DNA of 64,000 bases, taken from assembly GCF_001282785.1 (NCBI RefSeq), contig NZ_CVUA01000001.1, positions 2,170,001-2,234,000 of the forward strand. The letters run 5' to 3'. Positions 1,645 through 62,985 of this stretch are shown here, in pieces (position 1 is the stretch's first letter; each line of letters begins with the position of its first letter). Below the pieces are notes generated by a model. The model ran no database searches. It was not told the origin of the DNA and worked only from the letters and a program-made list of their open reading frames with translations. The translations under genes and the position numbers were made by a program. This DNA comes from Halolamina sediminis. GTDB lineage: Archaea; Halobacteriota; Halobacteria; Halobacteriales; Haloferacaceae.

Positions 1645-2936
1645 CAGCCCCGGCCACCCCGGTCCTCGTTCGCCTCGTCCTCGGGCTCGCCCTCGGTGGC
1701 GTCGCGCTGTTCGTCCGCGCGATCGGCCGCCGTCGCCGGGCGTTCCTCAGTCGATTCGCGATCGGCGGCGTCACGGCCGGCCGCCTCCGCCGGAGGCTCG
1801 TCGGTTTCCCCACGCTGCTCGGCGTCGCGGCCGGCCGCCTCCGCCGGCGGCTCGTCGGTCCCCTCGCGGTGGGCGGCGTCCCGGCCGGCCATCTCCGCGG
1901 GCGGCCGATCGGTCGCGTCGGCCTCGGTGGCGTAGCGTCCCGACTCTTCCGCGGGGGTGACGTTCGCGTCGCCCGTGTCGACGCCGTGGGCTCGCTCCGC
2001 GGCCGTGTCGGCGTCGGCCGCGGGACCTTCGGCCTCGGGGCGTTCGCGACGGGCGATGTCGTCCGGCGTCGTCGCCCGCGCGGGTTCGACCGACTCGTCG
2101 TACGTGTCCGATCGGTCGGTGTCGACCGGCGCCGAGCGGCGGATCGTCGGCGAGTCGTCCTCGGGGTCGAACTGCTGGTCGGCGTGTTCGACGCCGGCCA
2201 GATCGCGAAGCTGCTCCTCGGACATCCCCCCGCTCGTGGCGCCCTCGCCCCCGGCGACGGCGACACCGCTGGTAACGATGGCACGGATACCCTCCTCGAC
2301 GGTCATGTCCACGTCCATCACGCGGTCTGCGGGCATGTGGACCAGATGGCCCCCCATCACGGGGTTGGGCGCCAGCGGGAGAAACAGGGTGAGCATCTCG
2401 GCGTGGCCCGCCGGGTCCGAGAGCGCGTCCGGCGTCTCGGTCGTGACGAACCCCAGCGTGTACGCGCCCTCGTGGGGGAACTCCACCAGCTTCACCTCCC
2501 GGAAGCTCTGGGTGTCGGACTCGAGCATCACGTCGCTCATCTGCCGGAAGGAGTCGTAGACGCCGCCGACCGCGGGGATCTGGGAGATGAAGTAGTCGAA
2601 ATAGTCCACCGCGCGCTCGCCCCACTTGGTGGTGTTCGTGAAGATCCCCACCACCATGATGATGACGAGGAGCACGACCGGCGTGGCCAACTGGATCACG
2701 AACACGCCGACCGGGATGTCGCCGATGATCGGGAGCTTCACGCGGCTGTCGGCGGCGACGATCCCCTGTGCGAACCACGAGAGGTAGTCGTAGACGTACT
2801 GGAACCCGATCGCCAGGACGATCACCGTGACCAGCATCGGCACGACGACCGCGAGCCCCGTGACGAACGACTCCCGGAGGGTCTCGCGGGTCGACTTTCT
2901 GACGCGCTGGTCCATCCGCAGATCCGACTCGTCCAT
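1644..2936 (-). CDS. DUF502 family membrane protein with repetitive acidic tail
   Basis: The 430-residue product has two strong membrane helices (about residues 25-50 and 80-105) and the DUF502 signature, including PIIGDIPVGVFVIQ and FPHEGAYTLGFVT. From about residue 230 onward it becomes an acidic, probably disordered tail with four tandem 18-residue repeats before the C-terminus. I chose the ATG at 2936 over a TTG three codons upstream. The gene is coupled to archease downstream. The role of DUF502 proteins is unknown, and the tail is the unusual part. Confidence 0.88.
   Translation of the reverse strand: MDESDLRMDQRVRKSTRETLRESFVTGLAVVVPMLVTVIVLAIGFQYVYDYLSWFAQGIVAADSRVKLPIIGDIPVGVFVIQLATPVVLLVIIMVVGIFTNTTKWGERAVDYFDYFISQIPAVGGVYDSFRQMSDVMLESDTQSFREVKLVEFPHEGAYTLGFVTTETPDALSDPAGHAEMLTLFLPLAPNPVMGGHLVHMPADRVMDVDMTVEEGIRAIVTSGVAVAGGEGATSGGMSEEQLRDLAGVEHADQQFDPEDDSPTIRRSAPVDTDRSDTYDESVEPARATTPDDIARRERPEAEGPAADADTAAERAHGVDTGDANVTPAEESGRYATEADATDRPPAEMAGRDAAHREGTDEPPAEAAGRDAEQRGETDEPPAEAAGRDAADRESTEERPATAADRADEQRDATEGEPEDEANEDRGGRG
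1689..1904 (-). repeat. 54-bp in-frame tandem repeat inside the DUF502 gene
   Basis: About four units of 54 bp encode 18-residue repeats of the form PPAEAAGRDAxxRxxTDE near the C-terminus of the DUF502 protein. The two central units are the most alike at DNA level, and the outer units have drifted. Unit length is a multiple of three, so copy number can change without breaking the frame. Confidence 0.8.
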
Positions 2937-3053
2937 TCGTTCCAATCAACGCAGTGACTCCCGCTAAAGCCTTCGGCCTCCCCGGAGTCGCGGCGTCGCC
3001 GGCCGGCCACGGCGCCCACCATCCTTTCCCCGACGCGACGCGTTGGTCGGGGT

Positions 3054-3413
3054 ATGGCCCTCATCGACGGACTGCTCGTCGGTATCGTCAGCCTGCTCGT
3101 CGGCGCGCTCGCGATTCACATCGGCGCGAGGGTGGTCGTCGGCGACGAGCCGGCGTTCGGCGACGCCGTCATCGCCGCGGCCGTGGGCGCGCTGGTGTAC
3201 GCGCTGTTCGGCTTCGTCGGCGGGATTCCCGTCGTCGGCCCGGCGCTGCTGCTCCTGCTGTGGATCGGCGTCGTGAACTGGCGCTACCCCGGCGGCTGGC
3301 TCAGCGCCGCGGGGATCGGCTTCGCGGCGTGGCTGGCGGCGATCGTGCTGCTGTGGATCCTCTCGCGGGTCAGCCTCGTCGAGATCGGCGCGCTGGGCAT
3401 CCCGGGTATCTGA
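3054..3413 (+). CDS. Small membrane protein, four predicted helices
   Basis: The 119-residue product is almost wholly hydrophobic, with helices near residues 3-26, 36-70, 80-100 and 100-112 and short loops. It begins MALIDGLLVGIVSLL. I do not recognise a named family. It is divergent from the DUF502 gene (118 bp between starts) and lies 39 bp before the short stress protein. The ATG at 3054 puts the first helix directly at the N-terminus, which fits a membrane protein. Confidence 0.8.
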   Translation: MALIDGLLVGIVSLLVGALAIHIGARVVVGDEPAFGDAVIAAAVGALVYALFGFVGGIPVVGPALLLLLWIGVVNWRYPGGWLSAAGIGFAAWLAAIVLLWILSRVSLVEIGALGIPGI

Positions 3414-7745: not shown

Positions 7746-7870
7746 GGGTTGTTTAGCGAACGGTCGGGGCTGGGCTTTCCGTTGACCGACGACAGGGATT
7801 CGGAACAGCGACCGCCGAGTTCGGTTGGACTGCGGACAGGACCGCGGAGTGAGCATGACCACTTATGACT

Positions 7871-7907
7871 GTGCCGGGCCACGTGCCCGGGGCCCTGCGA
7901 TCGCAAG
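7871..7907 (+). repeat. Left fragment of a split dispersed repeat
   Basis: These 37 bases match 62793-62829 at 31 of 37 positions without gaps (GCCGGGCC-CGTGCCCGG core hairpin, then TCGCAAG). In the 62.5-kb copy the match continues directly into the sequence found here only at 11193-11250, so this is the left part of a repeat interrupted by the island. Between 7746 and 7870 I see no gene. A weak further match to the upstream part of the repeat (CCGCGG ... ACTT) may be present. Confidence 0.65.
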
Positions 7908-7923
7908 TATCAAGCATCGAGAT

Positions 7924-7940
7924 GCTCTGTTGAAACCCTC
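7924..7940 (-). repeat. 17-bp terminal-type repeat, inverted copy (left edge of island)
   Basis: GCTCTGTTGAAACCCTC here is the exact reverse complement of 9165-9181 and matches 11176-11192 with one difference. Together with 9165-9181 it encloses 1,258 bp, an insertion-sequence-like size. I see no target duplication outside it. The ends resemble IS termini, but I cannot name the family. Confidence 0.7.
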
Positions 7941-8033
7941 AACCGGAGATCTGTTCTCAGCGTTCTGCTGAGTACAGAGCACGAATGCCGCAGTACCAGT
8001 ATCATTACAATACGTGGACACACATCAGGTGCC

Positions 8034-8504
8034 ATGCCCTCCAGACGTGAGCTGATAGCGGGTGTTGCTGCCACTGTGACTGCAACCGCTGGCTGTCTCG
8101 GTAATGAAGAACTCATCGCTCGGTGTTCCAGTCGAGGCGTGGGCAGCGATTCGCAATATCTTGGAAAGATTGCTCCAATACGAGGTGAAGATCAGGTCTC
8201 CCTCGGGATACTGGTTTCTGACCAAGCCATTACTGGAGAACGGTACCACGCAGTCAGGATACGAGATAGTGATGACGACCTCGTCGCGTCGATTCCACTC
8301 ATGAGCAATCGAGGGATGAGTAGTCTCGACCCCGAGGACTACCCCGTGTTTGGCTCCAGCAGTGACGAACTCTACGCGGTACCGTTGGGCCCCCCACCGG
8401 TTCACGGTGAATACACTGTCTCGTTGACTGACCCGGATGCCGAGCAGATCGCAACCGCAAGTGTTCGGTTCAACTGCTACGCAGAGGGCGAAACGCTTCC
8501 GTAA
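8034..8504 (+). CDS. Putative Tat-exported lipoprotein
   Basis: The 156-residue product starts MPSRRELIAGVAATVTATAGCLG: twin Arg, hydrophobic stretch and a TAGC lipobox with Cys near residue 21, the usual pattern of haloarchaeal Tat lipoproteins. The mature part is predicted to be a beta-rich extracellular domain (GILVSDQAITGERYHAVRI). No family is recognised. Codon use is less GC-biased than in flanking core genes, and it lies between the inverted 17-bp repeats, so it looks like a passenger gene. Opposite-strand frames here are less acidic and rejected. Confidence 0.7.
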   Translation: MPSRRELIAGVAATVTATAGCLGNEELIARCSSRGVGSDSQYLGKIAPIRGEDQVSLGILVSDQAITGERYHAVRIRDSDDDLVASIPLMSNRGMSSLDPEDYPVFGSSSDELYAVPLGPPPVHGEYTVSLTDPDAEQIATASVRFNCYAEGETLP

Positions 8505-8747
8505 CTGAGGCGTTCACCGTGCTGCCTACACCCTCTGTATCGCGTACGCCCCTACTGACAGAAGTTGAGTAGTTGTCGAAGCAAGCTGCTGCATACAGGG
8601 CGTGAGTCTTGCACGACGGTGCAGTCTATTCGAAACCGAGATCATCGGTTAGTTGTGAATACGGCACTTTCGATTGCGCTACGTGACGAGCCAGCGCGCA
8701 GATTTATGATCGTGCTCCTCGTAACTCGGAAGTGAGGAGAGCTACAG

Positions 8748-9056
8748 ATGTGCGGGGAGCAGATCTCGCTCGACACCATTCTCGATGCTGTCCGTGACCT
8801 CGGGTATGACGGCATTGATCGGGCTGAAGGGTTTCCAGACGAAGCAAGCGGACAAGTCGCACTCCCTGAACAACATCGCCGAGAACCCCCAGAAGGACTG
8901 CGGCGCTTTCTCCCGCGTGTCTACTGTGACGCAGGCAATCCAGACCTCGTTCCTGAGGACCTCCGCGCGGCTGTTGAACAGTACGGCTGGACTGTCCAAG
9001 CAATGGGACGGGACGGCCAGACAGTGACGGTTGTCATCTCGAAGAATGGTGTGTAG
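8748..9056 (+). CDS. Small protein of unknown function in the island
   Basis: The 102-residue product starts MCGEQISLDTILDAVRDLG. It is acidic and soluble, with a helical N-terminus and a C-terminal RAAVEQYGWTVQAMGRDG segment ending in a beta strand. A GAGGAG ribosome site lies about 10 bp before the ATG. It resembles no family I can name. A competing minus-strand frame (8742-9125) is Cys-rich and not acidic, so it is less likely. No gene is evident between 8505 and 8747 or between 9057 and 9164. Confidence 0.55.
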   Translation: MCGEQISLDTILDAVRDLGYDGIDRAEGFPDEASGQVALPEQHRREPPEGLRRFLPRVYCDAGNPDLVPEDLRAAVEQYGWTVQAMGRDGQTVTVVISKNGV

Positions 9057-9164
9057 TGGGTGAACGTCTCTGGTCGATTGGTCTGTCGAGATCGTCGTCC
9101 CACCAACGGACACCAAACGCCCCATTGATCCTCCGTATCTCGCACGCCGATCCTATCAGTTCTC

Positions 9165-9181
9165 GAGGGTTTCAACAGAGC
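9165..9181 (+). repeat. 17-bp terminal-type repeat, direct copy (internal)
   Basis: GAGGGTTTCAACAGAGC is the exact inverse of 7924-7940 and differs by one base from 11176-11192. Its last eight bases (AACAGAGC) became the target duplication of the IS6 element, so the IS inserted precisely at the edge of this repeat. Confidence 0.7.
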
Positions 9182-9926
9182 GGCACTGTCAAGTTAAGCC
9201 AGTTTGAGAAGTGAGCAGTTCGTTGGTTTTGGTGTCTATGCGAAACCAAGAACTGCTCAAAGAGACGTTGAACACAGCGAATGTTGAATGTTGGGAGCGA
9301 GAGCGGACGGCGACGCCCGTCAGGGCGTTCGCCGTCCGCCTCCACGCGACCGGCTGTTCGCTTCGAGAAACGAAAGAAATTCTCCGATTATTCGGCGTAG
9401 AACGCTCACATCAAGCGATCTGCCAATGGGTTCACCGAGTCGCTGATAGCGTCGGCGACCCGCCGACGGCGCAGCCGTCAAGGGTCGCAGTTGACGAGAC
9501 CGCTATCAAAATCAATGGCGAATGGTCTTGGCTGTACGCTGCAATAGATCTCGACACAAAACTGATTCTTGATGTGGAGCTGTTCGGACGACATGGGACT
9601 GATCCAGCGGCTGCGTTCCTTCACGGACTCCGTGAGAAACACGATCTCTCCGACGCTGTGTTTCTCGTTGACCAGTTCGGGTATAGGACTGCCCTCTCTC
9701 GCTTAGGGCTCAACGGTCGGGTTGACTATACCGACCGAAACCACATCGAAAAGTGGTTTCACACCCTCAAAATGCGCATCGACCGTTTCCACAACTCCTG
9801 GGTCGGCAGTCGGGCAAGCGCACGCGAATGGCTTGAACAATTTGTGCATTACTACAACTACCAGAGACCGCATCAATCGCTCGACGAACAAACGCCAGCA
9901 GAAGCCGTGCTTAACTAGACAGTGCC
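9182..9926 (+). mobile_element. IS6-family insertion sequence, complete, 745 bp
   Basis: The ends are GGCACTGTC-A-AGTTAAGC on the left and the reverse complement of GGCACTGTC-T-AGTTAAGC on the right, an 18-bp terminal inverted repeat with one mismatch. Both flanks carry the 8-bp direct duplication AACAGAGC (9174-9181 and 9927-9934), typical of IS6. The single transposase gene is intact. The perfect duplication suggests recent simple insertion. The right end lies 52 bp before the isomerase start codon. Confidence 0.95.
9238..9918 (+). CDS. IS6-family transposase
   Basis: The 226-residue DDE transposase has an N-terminal helix-turn-helix-like region (about residues 25-65, SLRETKEILRLFGVERSHQ), then catalytic Asp86 (AVDETAI), Asp145 (LVDQFG) and Glu171 (HIEKWFH). 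It closes with the family's FHNSWVGS and YYNYQRPHQSL motifs. The full catalytic triad and lack of frameshift indicate an active or recently active enzyme. The ATG at 9238 is chosen because upstream codons overlap the terminal repeat. Confidence 0.95.
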   Translation: MRNQELLKETLNTANVECWERERTATPVRAFAVRLHATGCSLRETKEILRLFGVERSHQAICQWVHRVADSVGDPPTAQPSRVAVDETAIKINGEWSWLYAAIDLDTKLILDVELFGRHGTDPAAAFLHGLREKHDLSDAVFLVDQFGYRTALSRLGLNGRVDYTDRNHIEKWFHTLKMRIDRFHNSWVGSRASAREWLEQFVHYYNYQRPHQSLDEQTPAEAVLN

Positions 9927-9978
9927 AACAGAGCCATACAACAGTATTGTTTTGCCACCTCCTGTACGAACTCGGGTA

Positions 9979-11061
9979 ATGACGGCGCAGGACTCCTCGG
10001 AGACTGAAGACCGAAAGGACGACCACCTTCAAATCGTTCAGGATCGGGACGTCGAAACGACAGGGACGGGCTTCGACGACGTCCGACTCATCCATAACGC
10101 GCTTCCGGAACTTGATTACGACGCGATCGATCCCTCCATCGACTTCCTGGGTCACGACTTATCTGCCCCGATCTTCATCGAGAGCATGACTGGCGGGCAC
10201 CAGAACACGACGGAGATTAATCGGGCGCTGGCCCGGGCCGCCAGCGAGACCGGCATCGCCATGGGTCTCGGTAGCCAGCGAGCGGGCCTCGAACTCGACG
10301 ACGAACGCGTCCTCGAATCGTACACCGTCGTCCGCGATGCCGCGCCCGATGCGTTCATCTACGGGAACCTCGGCGCTGCACAGCTCCGAGAGTACGACAT
10401 CGGAATGGTCGAGCAGGCAGTCGAAATGATCGACGCCGACGCGCTCGCGGTTCACCTGAACTTCCTTCAGGAAGCCACCCAACCTGAAGGCGATGTCGAC
10501 GGGCGGAACTGTGTAGCTGCGATCGAACGAGTGTCCGAGGCACTCTCGGTGCCGATTATCGTCAAGGAAACGGGCAACGGAATTTCCGGAGAGACTGCTC
10601 GCGAGCTAACTGCGGCAGGCGTTGACGCGATCGACGTCGCTGGTAAAGGCGGAACGACGTGGTCCGGGATCGAAGCCTATCGCGCAGCAGCCGCGAACGC
10701 GCCGCGGCAGCAACGAATCGGCACGCTGTTCCGAGAATGGGGCATCCCGACCGCTGCAAGTACGATCGAGTGTGTTACCGAACACGACTGCGTAATTGCG
10801 AGTGGTGGTGTCCGAACGGGATTGGACGTGGCAAAAGCGATTGCCCTAGGTGCCCACGCCGGCGGGTTGGCGAAACCGTTCTTGAAACCAGCCACAGACG
10901 GGCCAGACGCTGTCATCGAACGGGTCGAAGACCTGATCGCCGAGCTGCGGACAGCGATGTTCGTCACCGGCTCGGGGTCGATCGATGAACTTCAGCAGGT
11001 AGAATACGTGTTGCACGGAGAGACACGCGAGTACGTGGAACAACGAACCAGTAGCGAGTAG
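9979..11061 (+). CDS. fni: Type 2 isopentenyl-diphosphate delta-isomerase
   Basis: The 360-residue FMN enzyme interconverts isopentenyl and dimethylallyl diphosphate for archaeal lipid and carotenoid synthesis. Seen in the sequence are N-terminal [61 protein letters not shown] and [14 protein letters not shown]. The length fits the family. It lies inside the repeat-bounded island, away from other mevalonate genes, with lower GC than its neighbours. It may be an extra copy. The IS6 insertion lies 52 bp upstream, so its promoter may be altered or supplied by the IS. Confidence 0.95.
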
Positions 11062-11175
11062 TACCGAGTTCCCCAGCCTCAGCAGGATAGATTGAACAAC
11101 ACCAGGAAAGAGAGAGCCGACGGCGATATCTGTCCAGCCTGTACTTACTGACTATCGCGGAATCTCTCACAGGCG

Positions 11176-11192
11176 GAGGGTTTCAACAGCGC
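11176..11192 (+). repeat. 17-bp terminal-type repeat, direct copy (right edge of island)
   Basis: GAGGGTTTCAACAGCGC differs by one base from 9165-9181 and is the inverse of 7924-7940. With the left copy it bounds the 3.27-kb island. The right fragment of the split repeat begins at the very next base, so this marks the right boundary of the inserted DNA. Confidence 0.7.
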
Positions 11193-11250
11193 CCAACGAC
11201 CGAACTGCTGTCGCTATCGGAGTCGCTGTCCCAGTTACCAACGACCGAAC
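11193..11250 (+). repeat. Right fragment of a split dispersed repeat
   Basis: These 58 bases match 62833-62890 at 47 of 58 positions without gaps. The shared core is GAACTGCTGTCGC and a terminal CCAACGA-CGAAC. In the intact copy this segment follows three bases after the part found here at 7871-7907. Confidence 0.75.
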
Positions 11251-62455: not shown

Positions 62456-62500
62456 TCGGTTTGAAGAGGGTTTGTTTCGACAGTCTGTCGACTCGTTAGC

Positions 62501-62890
62501 TACTGCAACGGCGACAGCATGTCGATCGTTGGCACCTTGTGACCGCACCGCCCCGCACAGCCCACAGCCCTCCCCAACCGATTCGGTCGCTCCTTCGTCG
62601 CTCCCTCGTCCTCCGAGAGAGCAAGCTCTCACGTGCCCTCGCTCGGTTCACTCGCGAGGACCTCGCGCTGACACGCCGCACGAGGCCGCGTGCGCTTCGC
62701 GCCACTGCTGGCTGCGGTGCGGTGGCGGAGCGGTGGACGCCGCGGCCTCGCACCGGTCGCGAGGCCGCGGGGAGGGGTGGGGACTTGGCGCTGCGCCGGG
62801 CCTCGTGCCCGGCGCACTGCAGTCGCAAGGTTCCAACATTCGAACTGCTGTCGCCGTCGCGGTTGCTGTCTCAGTTGCCAACGATCGAAC
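62501..62890 (+). repeat. Intact dispersed intergenic repeat with inverted ends
   Basis: The reverse complement of 62501-62540 matches 62825-62864 at about four of five positions. Between the arms lie hairpins (CCGCGGCCTCG ... CGAGGCCGCGG at about 62741-62770, and CCGGGCC-CGTGCCCGG at about 62796-62812). The right part resembles the two fragments at 7871-7907 and 11193-11250. Cys- and Arg-rich frames in it are not acidic and are not genes. The 530-bp gap 62456-62985 holds this element only. Confidence 0.7.
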
Positions 62891-62985
62891 TGCTGTCGTA
62901 GCAACTCCCGTCAGTAGCTGTTCGAAAAACCACGCCGAATACCGCTCCACCAACCCCTAAGAACCCCCCGACCCCACCGTCGAGC

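What the first reader, a model, noticed from the sequence alone, without database searches (positions are those of the whole stretch)
7871..11250. Island of 3.3 kb inserted into a dispersed repeat, with the two repeat halves at its edges
Bases 7871-7907 match 62793-62829 (31 of 37) and bases 11193-11250 match 62833-62890 (47 of 58), both without gaps. In the 62.5-kb copy the two matches are three bases apart, so 3.3 kb now separates them here. The left breakpoint falls between 7908 and 7924, and the right one at 11192/11193. This dates the island as later than the repeat and gives its exact edges.
Basis: partly seen in the sequence, partly recalled or inferred. Interest (0 to 1): 0.75.

Follow-up and report, generated by a model that had tools for sequence, protein, structure and literature searches.

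The report
Two fused passenger-gene cassettes inside repeat
In a salt-loving archaeon, a 3.3-kb stretch that split an older scattered repeat turns out to be two fused "gene cassettes": ordinary genes held between the end sequences of a transposon that has lost its own transposase. Cassettes with the same ends occur across many salt-loving archaea and may be a simple way these organisms swap single genes.

Summary
A dispersed repeat with about 50 copies in the genome is split by an island, and three same-genus genomes carry the repeat at this site without it. The island is not one unexplained insert. It is bounded by matching inverted ends, L1 at 7923-7940 and R2 at 11176-11193, and has a third end, R1, inside (9165-9181 plus 9935). 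The 18-bp end GGCTCTGTTGAAAYCCTC occurs exactly in 168 of 295 haloarchaeal genomes, with none in the reversed-pattern control. In a 60-genome sample, 27 of 60 ends had a partner and an 8-bp target duplication: 12 IS5-family IS copies, 6 MITE-like, 9 with passenger genes and no working transposase. The window island fuses one passenger cassette (Tat-lipoprotein gene plus small ORF) directly to the right half of an fni cassette (type 2 isopentenyl-diphosphate isomerase), which is intact, with target duplication, in Halobellus and Halorubrum. An IS6 element then landed in R1. About 25 bp of the repeat are missing and the island edges show no target duplication, so the route of arrival is unresolved. 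Such cassettes resemble bacterial mobile insertion cassettes; I found no report of them in archaea beyond the small MITE ISH2 and one transposon passenger gene.

The parts
7869..7922 (+). Left half of the dispersed repeat, ending inside its first tandem unit (...CAAGCATCGAGA)
   Evidence: L038 matches through 7926
7923..7940 (+). L1: outer-left terminal inverted repeat (TGCTCTGTTGAAACCCTC; consensus GGCTCTGTTGAAAYCCTC)
   Evidence: 17-bp perfect inverse of 9165-9181; subterminal 69 bp 85.5% to the end of TSD-flanked element L121
7923..9181 (+). Cassette E1 (last base is 9935, split off by the IS6 insertion): passenger cassette without transposase, GC 56%
   Evidence: Both ends match ends of TSD-flanked elements; GC
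8034..8504 (+). Passenger gene: 156-aa Tat lipoprotein-like protein (twin Arg, lipobox TAGC)
   Evidence: ORF; relatives 75% (Halorarius halobius plasmid) and 53% (Halorussus pelagicus); no Pfam/NCBIfam hit
8517..8614 (+). Internal cassette-end-like module, also on several haloarchaeal plasmids; possible relic end
   Evidence: 77% over 52 bp to end region of TSD-flanked L140
8748..9056 (+). Small ORF, 102 aa, no detectable relatives
9165..9181 (-). R1: right terminal inverted repeat of E1 (outermost base 9935)
   Evidence: subterminal 53 bp 88.7% to end of TSD-flanked L140
9174..9181 (+). Left copy of the IS6 target duplication AACAGAGC
   Evidence: Sequence; same 8 bases at 9927-9934
9182..9926 (+). 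IS6-family insertion sequence, TIR GGCACTGTCAAGTTAAGC (17/18), transposase 9211-9918
   Evidence: NF033587 208 bits, cut-off 125; up to 91% DNA identity on a plasmid of archaeon DL31
9927..9934 (+). Right copy of the IS6 target duplication AACAGAGC
   Evidence: Sequence
9936..11193 (+). Right half of an fni cassette, starting 43 bp upstream of the fni ATG
   Evidence: 94.3% DNA identity over 9936-11148 to fni cassettes L156/L157/L065; 767 bp of their left part absent
9979..11061 (+). fni: type 2 isopentenyl-diphosphate Delta-isomerase, 360 aa; the genome also has a type 1 idi
   Evidence: TIGR02151 403 bits, cut-off 281; PDB 2zru E 4e-73; only copy, absent from 6 genus mates; idi1 at C1:2293707
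11176..11193 (-). R2: outer-right terminal inverted repeat (GAGGGTTTCAACAGCGCC)
   Evidence: ends 132 bp after the fni stop codon vs 134 bp in the intact cassette L157
11194..11250 (+). Right part of the dispersed repeat, starting at a tandem-unit boundary
   Evidence: orthologous to L038
62480..62930 (+). The other copy of the dispersed repeat in the window

Best explanation
The island is a composite of two transposase-less passenger cassettes of a haloarchaeal IS5-type transposon family, later struck by an IS6 element. The cassettes keep the family's 18-bp terminal inverted repeats and subterminal sequence but carry cellular genes where the IS has its transposase. SHOWN: the three family ends in the island; the same ends on 8-bp-duplicated elements in many genomes, some with transposase, some MITE-like, some with other genes; an intact fni cassette elsewhere; the IS6 insertion with its duplication; the pre-existing repeat. 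INFERRED: transposase of related IS copies acts on the ends in trans; E1 inserted (or its R1 end made an adjacent deletion) just upstream of the fni core promoter in an fni cassette; and the resulting L1...R2 unit entered the repeat as one compound element, with loss of about 25 bp of target. The fni copy keeps 43 bp of conserved upstream sequence, so it is probably expressed as an accessory second isopentenyl isomerase.
For: Island edges are mutually inverted repeats, and GAGGGTTTCAACAG occurs, allowing 1 mismatch, only 3 times in the 2.84-Mb genome, all three here. The exact 18-bp end occurs in 168/295 Halobacteriales genomes, reversed-pattern control 0. Sample of 60 ends from 60 genomes: 27 have a partner with target duplication >=7/8 at the correct register, against 1 in total at 16 other registers; of the 27, 12 carry the IS5 transposase, 6 are MITE-like, 9 carry other genes and no working transposase (largely separate set: 20 vs 0). 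Cargo includes glyoxalase, CAAX-protease-like, alpha/beta-hydrolase, BAT/HTH_10 regulator, HAD plus FilR1-type regulator, lipoproteins. E1's two ends match ends of such elements beyond the 18 bp. The fni cassette is 2,026 bp with identical duplication GAGAATTT in Halobellus rufus and Halorubrum laminariae, and with an ISH8B insert in H. trapanicum. fni homology begins at 9936, directly after R1's last base 9935, and the R2-to-fni spacing agrees (132 vs 134 bp). IS6 duplication AACAGAGC. Empty site with repeat in three relatives. Precedent for two adjacent elements sharing one duplication: ISH2 plus partial ISH8A (PMC10264941).
Against: No 8-bp duplication at the island's outer edges (CATCGAGA / CAACGACC, 5/8) nor around E1 alone, so a single clean transposition into the repeat is not shown. 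The first base of L1 (7923 T) departs from the consensus G. The genome holds no close cognate transposase, only IS5 relatives at 45-46% identity with somewhat different ends. The intact fni cassettes share flanks and duplication and so count as one event. Only 3 of 9 cassette-bearing genomes hold an intact close transposase. Action in trans is not tested.
Confidence: 0.8

Rival explanations
1. Two separate insertions: E1 and an fni cassette each landed in the same repeat, and one deletion from R1's outer edge to 43 bp upstream of fni fused them, taking both inner target duplications, the fni cassette's left end and the missing piece of the repeat.
For: One deletion explains the absent outer duplications, the missing ~25 bp of repeat, and the junction that starts exactly at R1's outer base. 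Deletions starting at an element end are a known IS effect (own knowledge).
Against: Needs two independent cassette insertions within ~40 bp in a genome with no other copy of these ends.
Confidence: 0.35
2. IS6-driven movement: the IS6 element brought fni in as a translocatable unit or composite, and the inverted ends are incidental.
For: An IS6 element lies directly upstream of fni here and also in Haloterrigena turkmenica pHTUR02.
Against: Only one IS6 copy; it has its own perfect 8-bp duplication inside R1, so it came last; the pHTUR02 copy sits at a different base with different flanks; the island ends belong to another family.
Confidence: 0.05
3. Homologous recombination between dispersed repeat copies brought in a pre-assembled island.
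For: About 50 repeat copies offer homology, and the flanks show a tandem-unit mismatch.
Against: Does not explain why the edges coincide with transposon ends; the repeat is nearly absent from plasmids that carry the cassettes (2 weak hits).
Confidence: 0.1
4. Chance: the two repeat matches and the inverted ends are random.
For: The window is GC-rich and the right match contains a simple GCTGTCG motif.
Against: 52 genome-wide matches, orthologous empty sites, duplication register control 27 vs 1.
Confidence: 0.01

Closest known systems
Mobile insertion cassettes (MIC231 type, Bacillus cereus; later Paracoccus and qnrD plasmids of Proteeae)
   Same: IS terminal repeats around passenger genes, no transposase, presumed movement by the transposase of a related IS (PMC3129680; MIC231 reference in PMC2266710; PMC3913671)
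   Different: MIC231 uses IS231 (IS4-family) ends and bacterial hosts; these use IS5-family (IS5_2) ends in haloarchaea, carry many unrelated cargos, and here two are fused
ISH2 and other haloarchaeal MITEs
   Same: Transposase-free, TIR-bounded, moved in trans; ISH2 holds a short ORF; ISH2 plus partial ISH8A was inserted as one unit with one common duplication (PMC10264941)
   Different: ISH2 is 531 bp, has ISH8-related ends and a 10-bp duplication; in Haloquadratum the ISH2-type HqIRS32 was the only MITE with a likely protein-coding ORF (PMC3119063). The cassettes here carry recognisable enzymes and regulators
Transporter IS (IS with passenger genes)
   Same: Passenger gene within one IS frame; L114 has transposase plus cargo
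   Different: tIS keep the transposase; the window cassettes do not
IS6/IS26 family
   Same: The 9182-9926 element: GGCACTGTC ends, DDE IS240 domain, 8-bp duplication
   Different: None noted; ordinary member

Membership tests
Mobile insertion cassette (MIC), as a class: the cassette family elsewhere | Terminal inverted repeats shared with a transposase-bearing IS | tested here: met
   Same 18-bp ends on IS5 elements and on gene-carrying elements
Mobile insertion cassette (MIC), as a class: the cassette family elsewhere | Passenger gene(s) and no transposase | tested here: met
   9 of 27 duplication-verified elements
Mobile insertion cassette (MIC), as a class: the cassette family elsewhere | Target duplication of the length the IS makes | tested here: met
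   8 bp for IS and cassettes alike; 27 at register 0, 1 at 16 other registers
Mobile insertion cassette (MIC), as a class: the cassette family elsewhere | Mobilisation in trans by the cognate transposase | not testable with these tools
   Needs an experiment; intact close transposase in 3 of 9 host genomes
MIC: the window island as one unit | Target duplication at its edges | tested here: not met
   CATCGAGA vs CAACGACC, 5/8; hence described as a rearranged fusion of cassettes, not filed as an intact MIC
IS5 family (IS5_2 group): autonomous partner | Transposase model over the curated cut-off | tested here: met
   NF033579 217 and 211 bits, cut-off 140
IS6 family | IS6 transposase, GGCACTGT-type ends, 8-bp duplication | tested here: met
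   NF033587 208 bits; TIR 17/18; AACAGAGC twice
Type 2 isopentenyl-diphosphate isomerase (Fni) | Equivalog model and solved relatives | tested here: met
   TIGR02151 403 bits; 2zru E 4e-73
ISH2-type MITE | ISH8-related ends, 10-bp duplication | tested here: not met
   8-bp duplications; linked to an IS5 transposase, not ISH8 (IS4)

The most novel reading that the evidence does not exclude
Haloarchaea have a widespread single-gene mobility system: IS5-type ends that repeatedly lose the transposase and capture cellular genes (enzymes, regulators, lipoproteins, transporters), giving MIC-like cassettes that are moved in trans, can fuse end to end, and spread genes such as fni between plasmids and chromosomes across genera.
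Probability: 0.5. Interest if true: 0.7.

Novelty: new variant of a known kind. Interest (0 to 1): 0.55.

Why it matters
A 2019 paper on thaumarchaeal mobile elements states that composite transposons carrying passenger genes had not been detected in archaea (PMC6563490), and the Haloquadratum survey knew one MITE with a likely coding ORF (PMC3119063). Here about a third of duplication-verified copies of one IS5-type family carry unrelated genes and no working transposase. If they move, they are a simple vehicle for single-gene transfer in haloarchaea, a group known for heavy gene exchange, and their ends are easy to search for. The window also gives a datable nested order (repeat, cassettes, IS6) and shows how cassettes fuse into larger units.

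Tried and rejected
CRISPR-like reading of the 17-bp repeats: rejected, the copies are inverted element ends. IS6-like origin of the GGCTCTGTTG ends (they resemble IS6-type TIRs at first sight): rejected, transposase-bearing elements with these ends encode IS5_2 transposases. Target duplication at the outer edges or at E1: not found. fni as essential sole isomerase: rejected, a type 1 idi match is present in all 7 genus genomes, below the family cut-off but also seen in Haloferax volcanii. Systematic scan of two replicons (G210:C3, G005:C3) plus part of G005:C2: 37 left and 39 right ends but only 3 duplication-verified pairs, so most ends there are solitary. Families for the 102-aa ORF: none. 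Rfam for the dispersed repeat: no match over threshold. Viral contigs: a single contig with the left end, not followed.
Full report
OBSERVATION. The two matches are exactly as stated (31/37 and 47/58; E 3e-7 and 1.8e-10 within the window). The 62.8-kb segment has 52 matches in the 2.84-Mb genome, one of them the right half at 11193-11250. Same-genus genomes (one, G005, has a 253,363-bp contig matching the length and coordinates of Halolamina sp. CBA1230 plasmid pCBA1230-02) show the herA / DUF7113 / nurA interval without the island. G003, G004 and G005 hold the repeat there; G001, G002 and G006 have neither. The island therefore postdates a repeat already at this site. Copies of the repeat read CAAG-TGGTC(A)AGCATCGAGATGCTGTTGCGGTTGCTGTCCCAGTTG-CCAACGATCGA.... 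The window's left half stops inside the first tandem unit and the right half starts at a unit start, so about 25 bp are missing and the 62.5-kb copy gives only approximate edges.

ANATOMY. Repeat searches show L1 (7924-7940) as a perfect 17-bp inverse of R1 (9165-9181) and a near-perfect inverse of R2 (11176-11192). GAGGGTTTCAACAG, with up to one mismatch, occurs three times in the genome, all here. An IS6 element (9182-9926; NF033587) sits one base inside R1's outer end, with duplication AACAGAGC at 9174-9181 and 9927-9934. It arrived last. Between L1 and R1 lie a Tat-lipoprotein gene and a 102-aa ORF. Between R1 and R2 lies fni (TIGR02151; PDB relative 2zru). GC is 56%, 54% and 60% in the three parts, against 68-71% in the flanks.

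WHAT THE ENDS ARE. With one mismatch allowed the end is found in 208 of 295 Halobacteriales genomes. The exact 18-mer GGCTCTGTTGAAAYCCTC is in 168 of 295, with none in the reversed control. Paired ends carry 8-bp target duplications. I then took one exact end from each of 60 genomes with up to 5 kb on each side. Twenty-seven have a partner with a duplication of at least 7/8 at the correct register; at 16 other registers one such case appears in total. Twelve of the 27 contain an IS5_2 transposase (NF033579; one of them broken by another IS), six are MITE-like (368-608 bp), and nine carry other genes with no transposase or only 35-78-residue remnants. Cargo with Pfam support in this and the earlier set: glyoxalase, Rce1-like protease, alpha/beta hydrolase, BAT/HTH_10 regulators, Na+/H+ exchanger (with a transposase fragment), HAD hydrolase plus FilR1-type regulator. 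The remnants suggest that cassettes arise by replacement of the transposase gene (inference). In complete scans of two replicons and part of a third most ends were solitary, so intact units are a minority on some replicons. An autonomous 1,450-bp copy and a 307-bp MITE sit on a plasmid of the window's genus.

E1 AND THE FNI CASSETTE. E1's left 69 bp match an end of the duplication-flanked element L121 at 85.5%, and its right 53 bp match an end of L140 at 88.7%, so E1 is a member of this cassette family. Its lipoprotein has relatives on plasmids of Halorarius halobius (75%) and Halorussus pelagicus (53%). In the former the gene is followed by an R1-like end (by eye). The fni segment 9936-11148 is 94% identical to a 2,026-bp cassette bounded by the same kind of ends: duplication GAGAATTT/GAGAATTT in Halobellus rufus and Halorubrum laminariae, 7/8 in Halobellus captivus, and on plasmid pCBA1232-02 of H. 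trapanicum with an ISH8B insert. The four share flanks, hence one insertion event by descent. In the window the R2 end lies 132 bp after the fni stop, against 134 bp there. The left 767 bp of that cassette are absent, and fni homology starts at 9936, the base after R1's outer base. The kept 43 bp upstream of ATG are where conservation begins in most fni copies and probably are the core promoter. Independent junctions lie near the same point in pHTUR02 (an IS6 end) and Natrinema sp. SYSU A 869 (another element end). fni is absent from six genus mates, and all seven genomes have a type 1 idi match, so fni is an accessory gain.

HISTORY AND MECHANISM. Shown: repeat first, IS6 last, the two cassettes in between. 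Not settled: how E1 and the fni half were joined and placed. Compound transposition of L1...R2 has a precedent in the ISH2 plus ISH8A unit with one common duplication (PMC10264941), but the expected 8-bp duplication is not seen (CATCGAGA / CAACGACC, 5/8). Two insertions followed by a deletion from R1's outer edge explain the missing duplications and missing repeat bases, but need two hits within about 40 bp. I give roughly 0.45 and 0.35 to these. The own genome holds only IS5 relatives at 45-46% with ends GGCTCTGGTGAATCGC, so the island may be stranded.

KNOWN OR NEW. The principle is that of bacterial mobile insertion cassettes (MIC231 and others; PMC2266710, PMC3129680, PMC3913671) and of ISH2, a MITE with an ORF moved by ISH8 (PMC10264941, PMC3119063). 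What I did not find in the open-access library is a report of an IS5-end cassette family with diverse cargo in archaea; a 2019 paper states that composite transposons with passenger genes were not detected in archaea (PMC6563490), though a transposon passenger gene is mentioned for Halorubrum lacusprofundi (PMC10544981). Subscription literature and ISfinder could not be searched. Verdict: new variant of a known kind.

Noticed in passing
62480-62930 and about 50 places in the own genome; C1:2699804-2700189: Dispersed repeat, perhaps 0.4 kb, with a GC-rich palindrome (GCGCCGGGCCTCGTGCCCGGCGC) and a tail of variable numbers of ~39-bp units, in one place about eight in tandem; no Rfam family, almost absent from plasmids.
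   Followed up: partly
9936-9978 (window), L066 about 4740, L267 about 5245: Three different element ends (E1's R1, an IS6 end, another IS-like end) abut the fni gene at nearly the same point about 43 bp upstream of its ATG, as if insertions are tolerated only up to the core promoter.
   Followed up: partly
8517-8614: A ~100-bp module inside E1 recurs on several haloarchaeal plasmids and resembles a cassette end with a decayed inverted repeat; E1 may itself be a fusion of two older cassettes.
   Followed up: partly
L037 about 1890-3170 (genome G002): In this relative the DUF7113-nurA gap instead holds a gene that looks like a major-facilitator transporter, so the interval is a recurrent insertion site.
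   Followed up: no
L114 1068-4865; L111 1104-3100: Duplication-flanked elements that carry both cargo (a DUF389-like membrane protein; a Na+/H+ exchanger) and all or part of the IS5 transposase: possible intermediates between IS and cassette.
   Followed up: partly
L199 (IMGVR_UViG_3300021255_000041, 64.6 kb): A viral contig holds one exact left end of this family, hinting at viral carriage.
   Followed up: no
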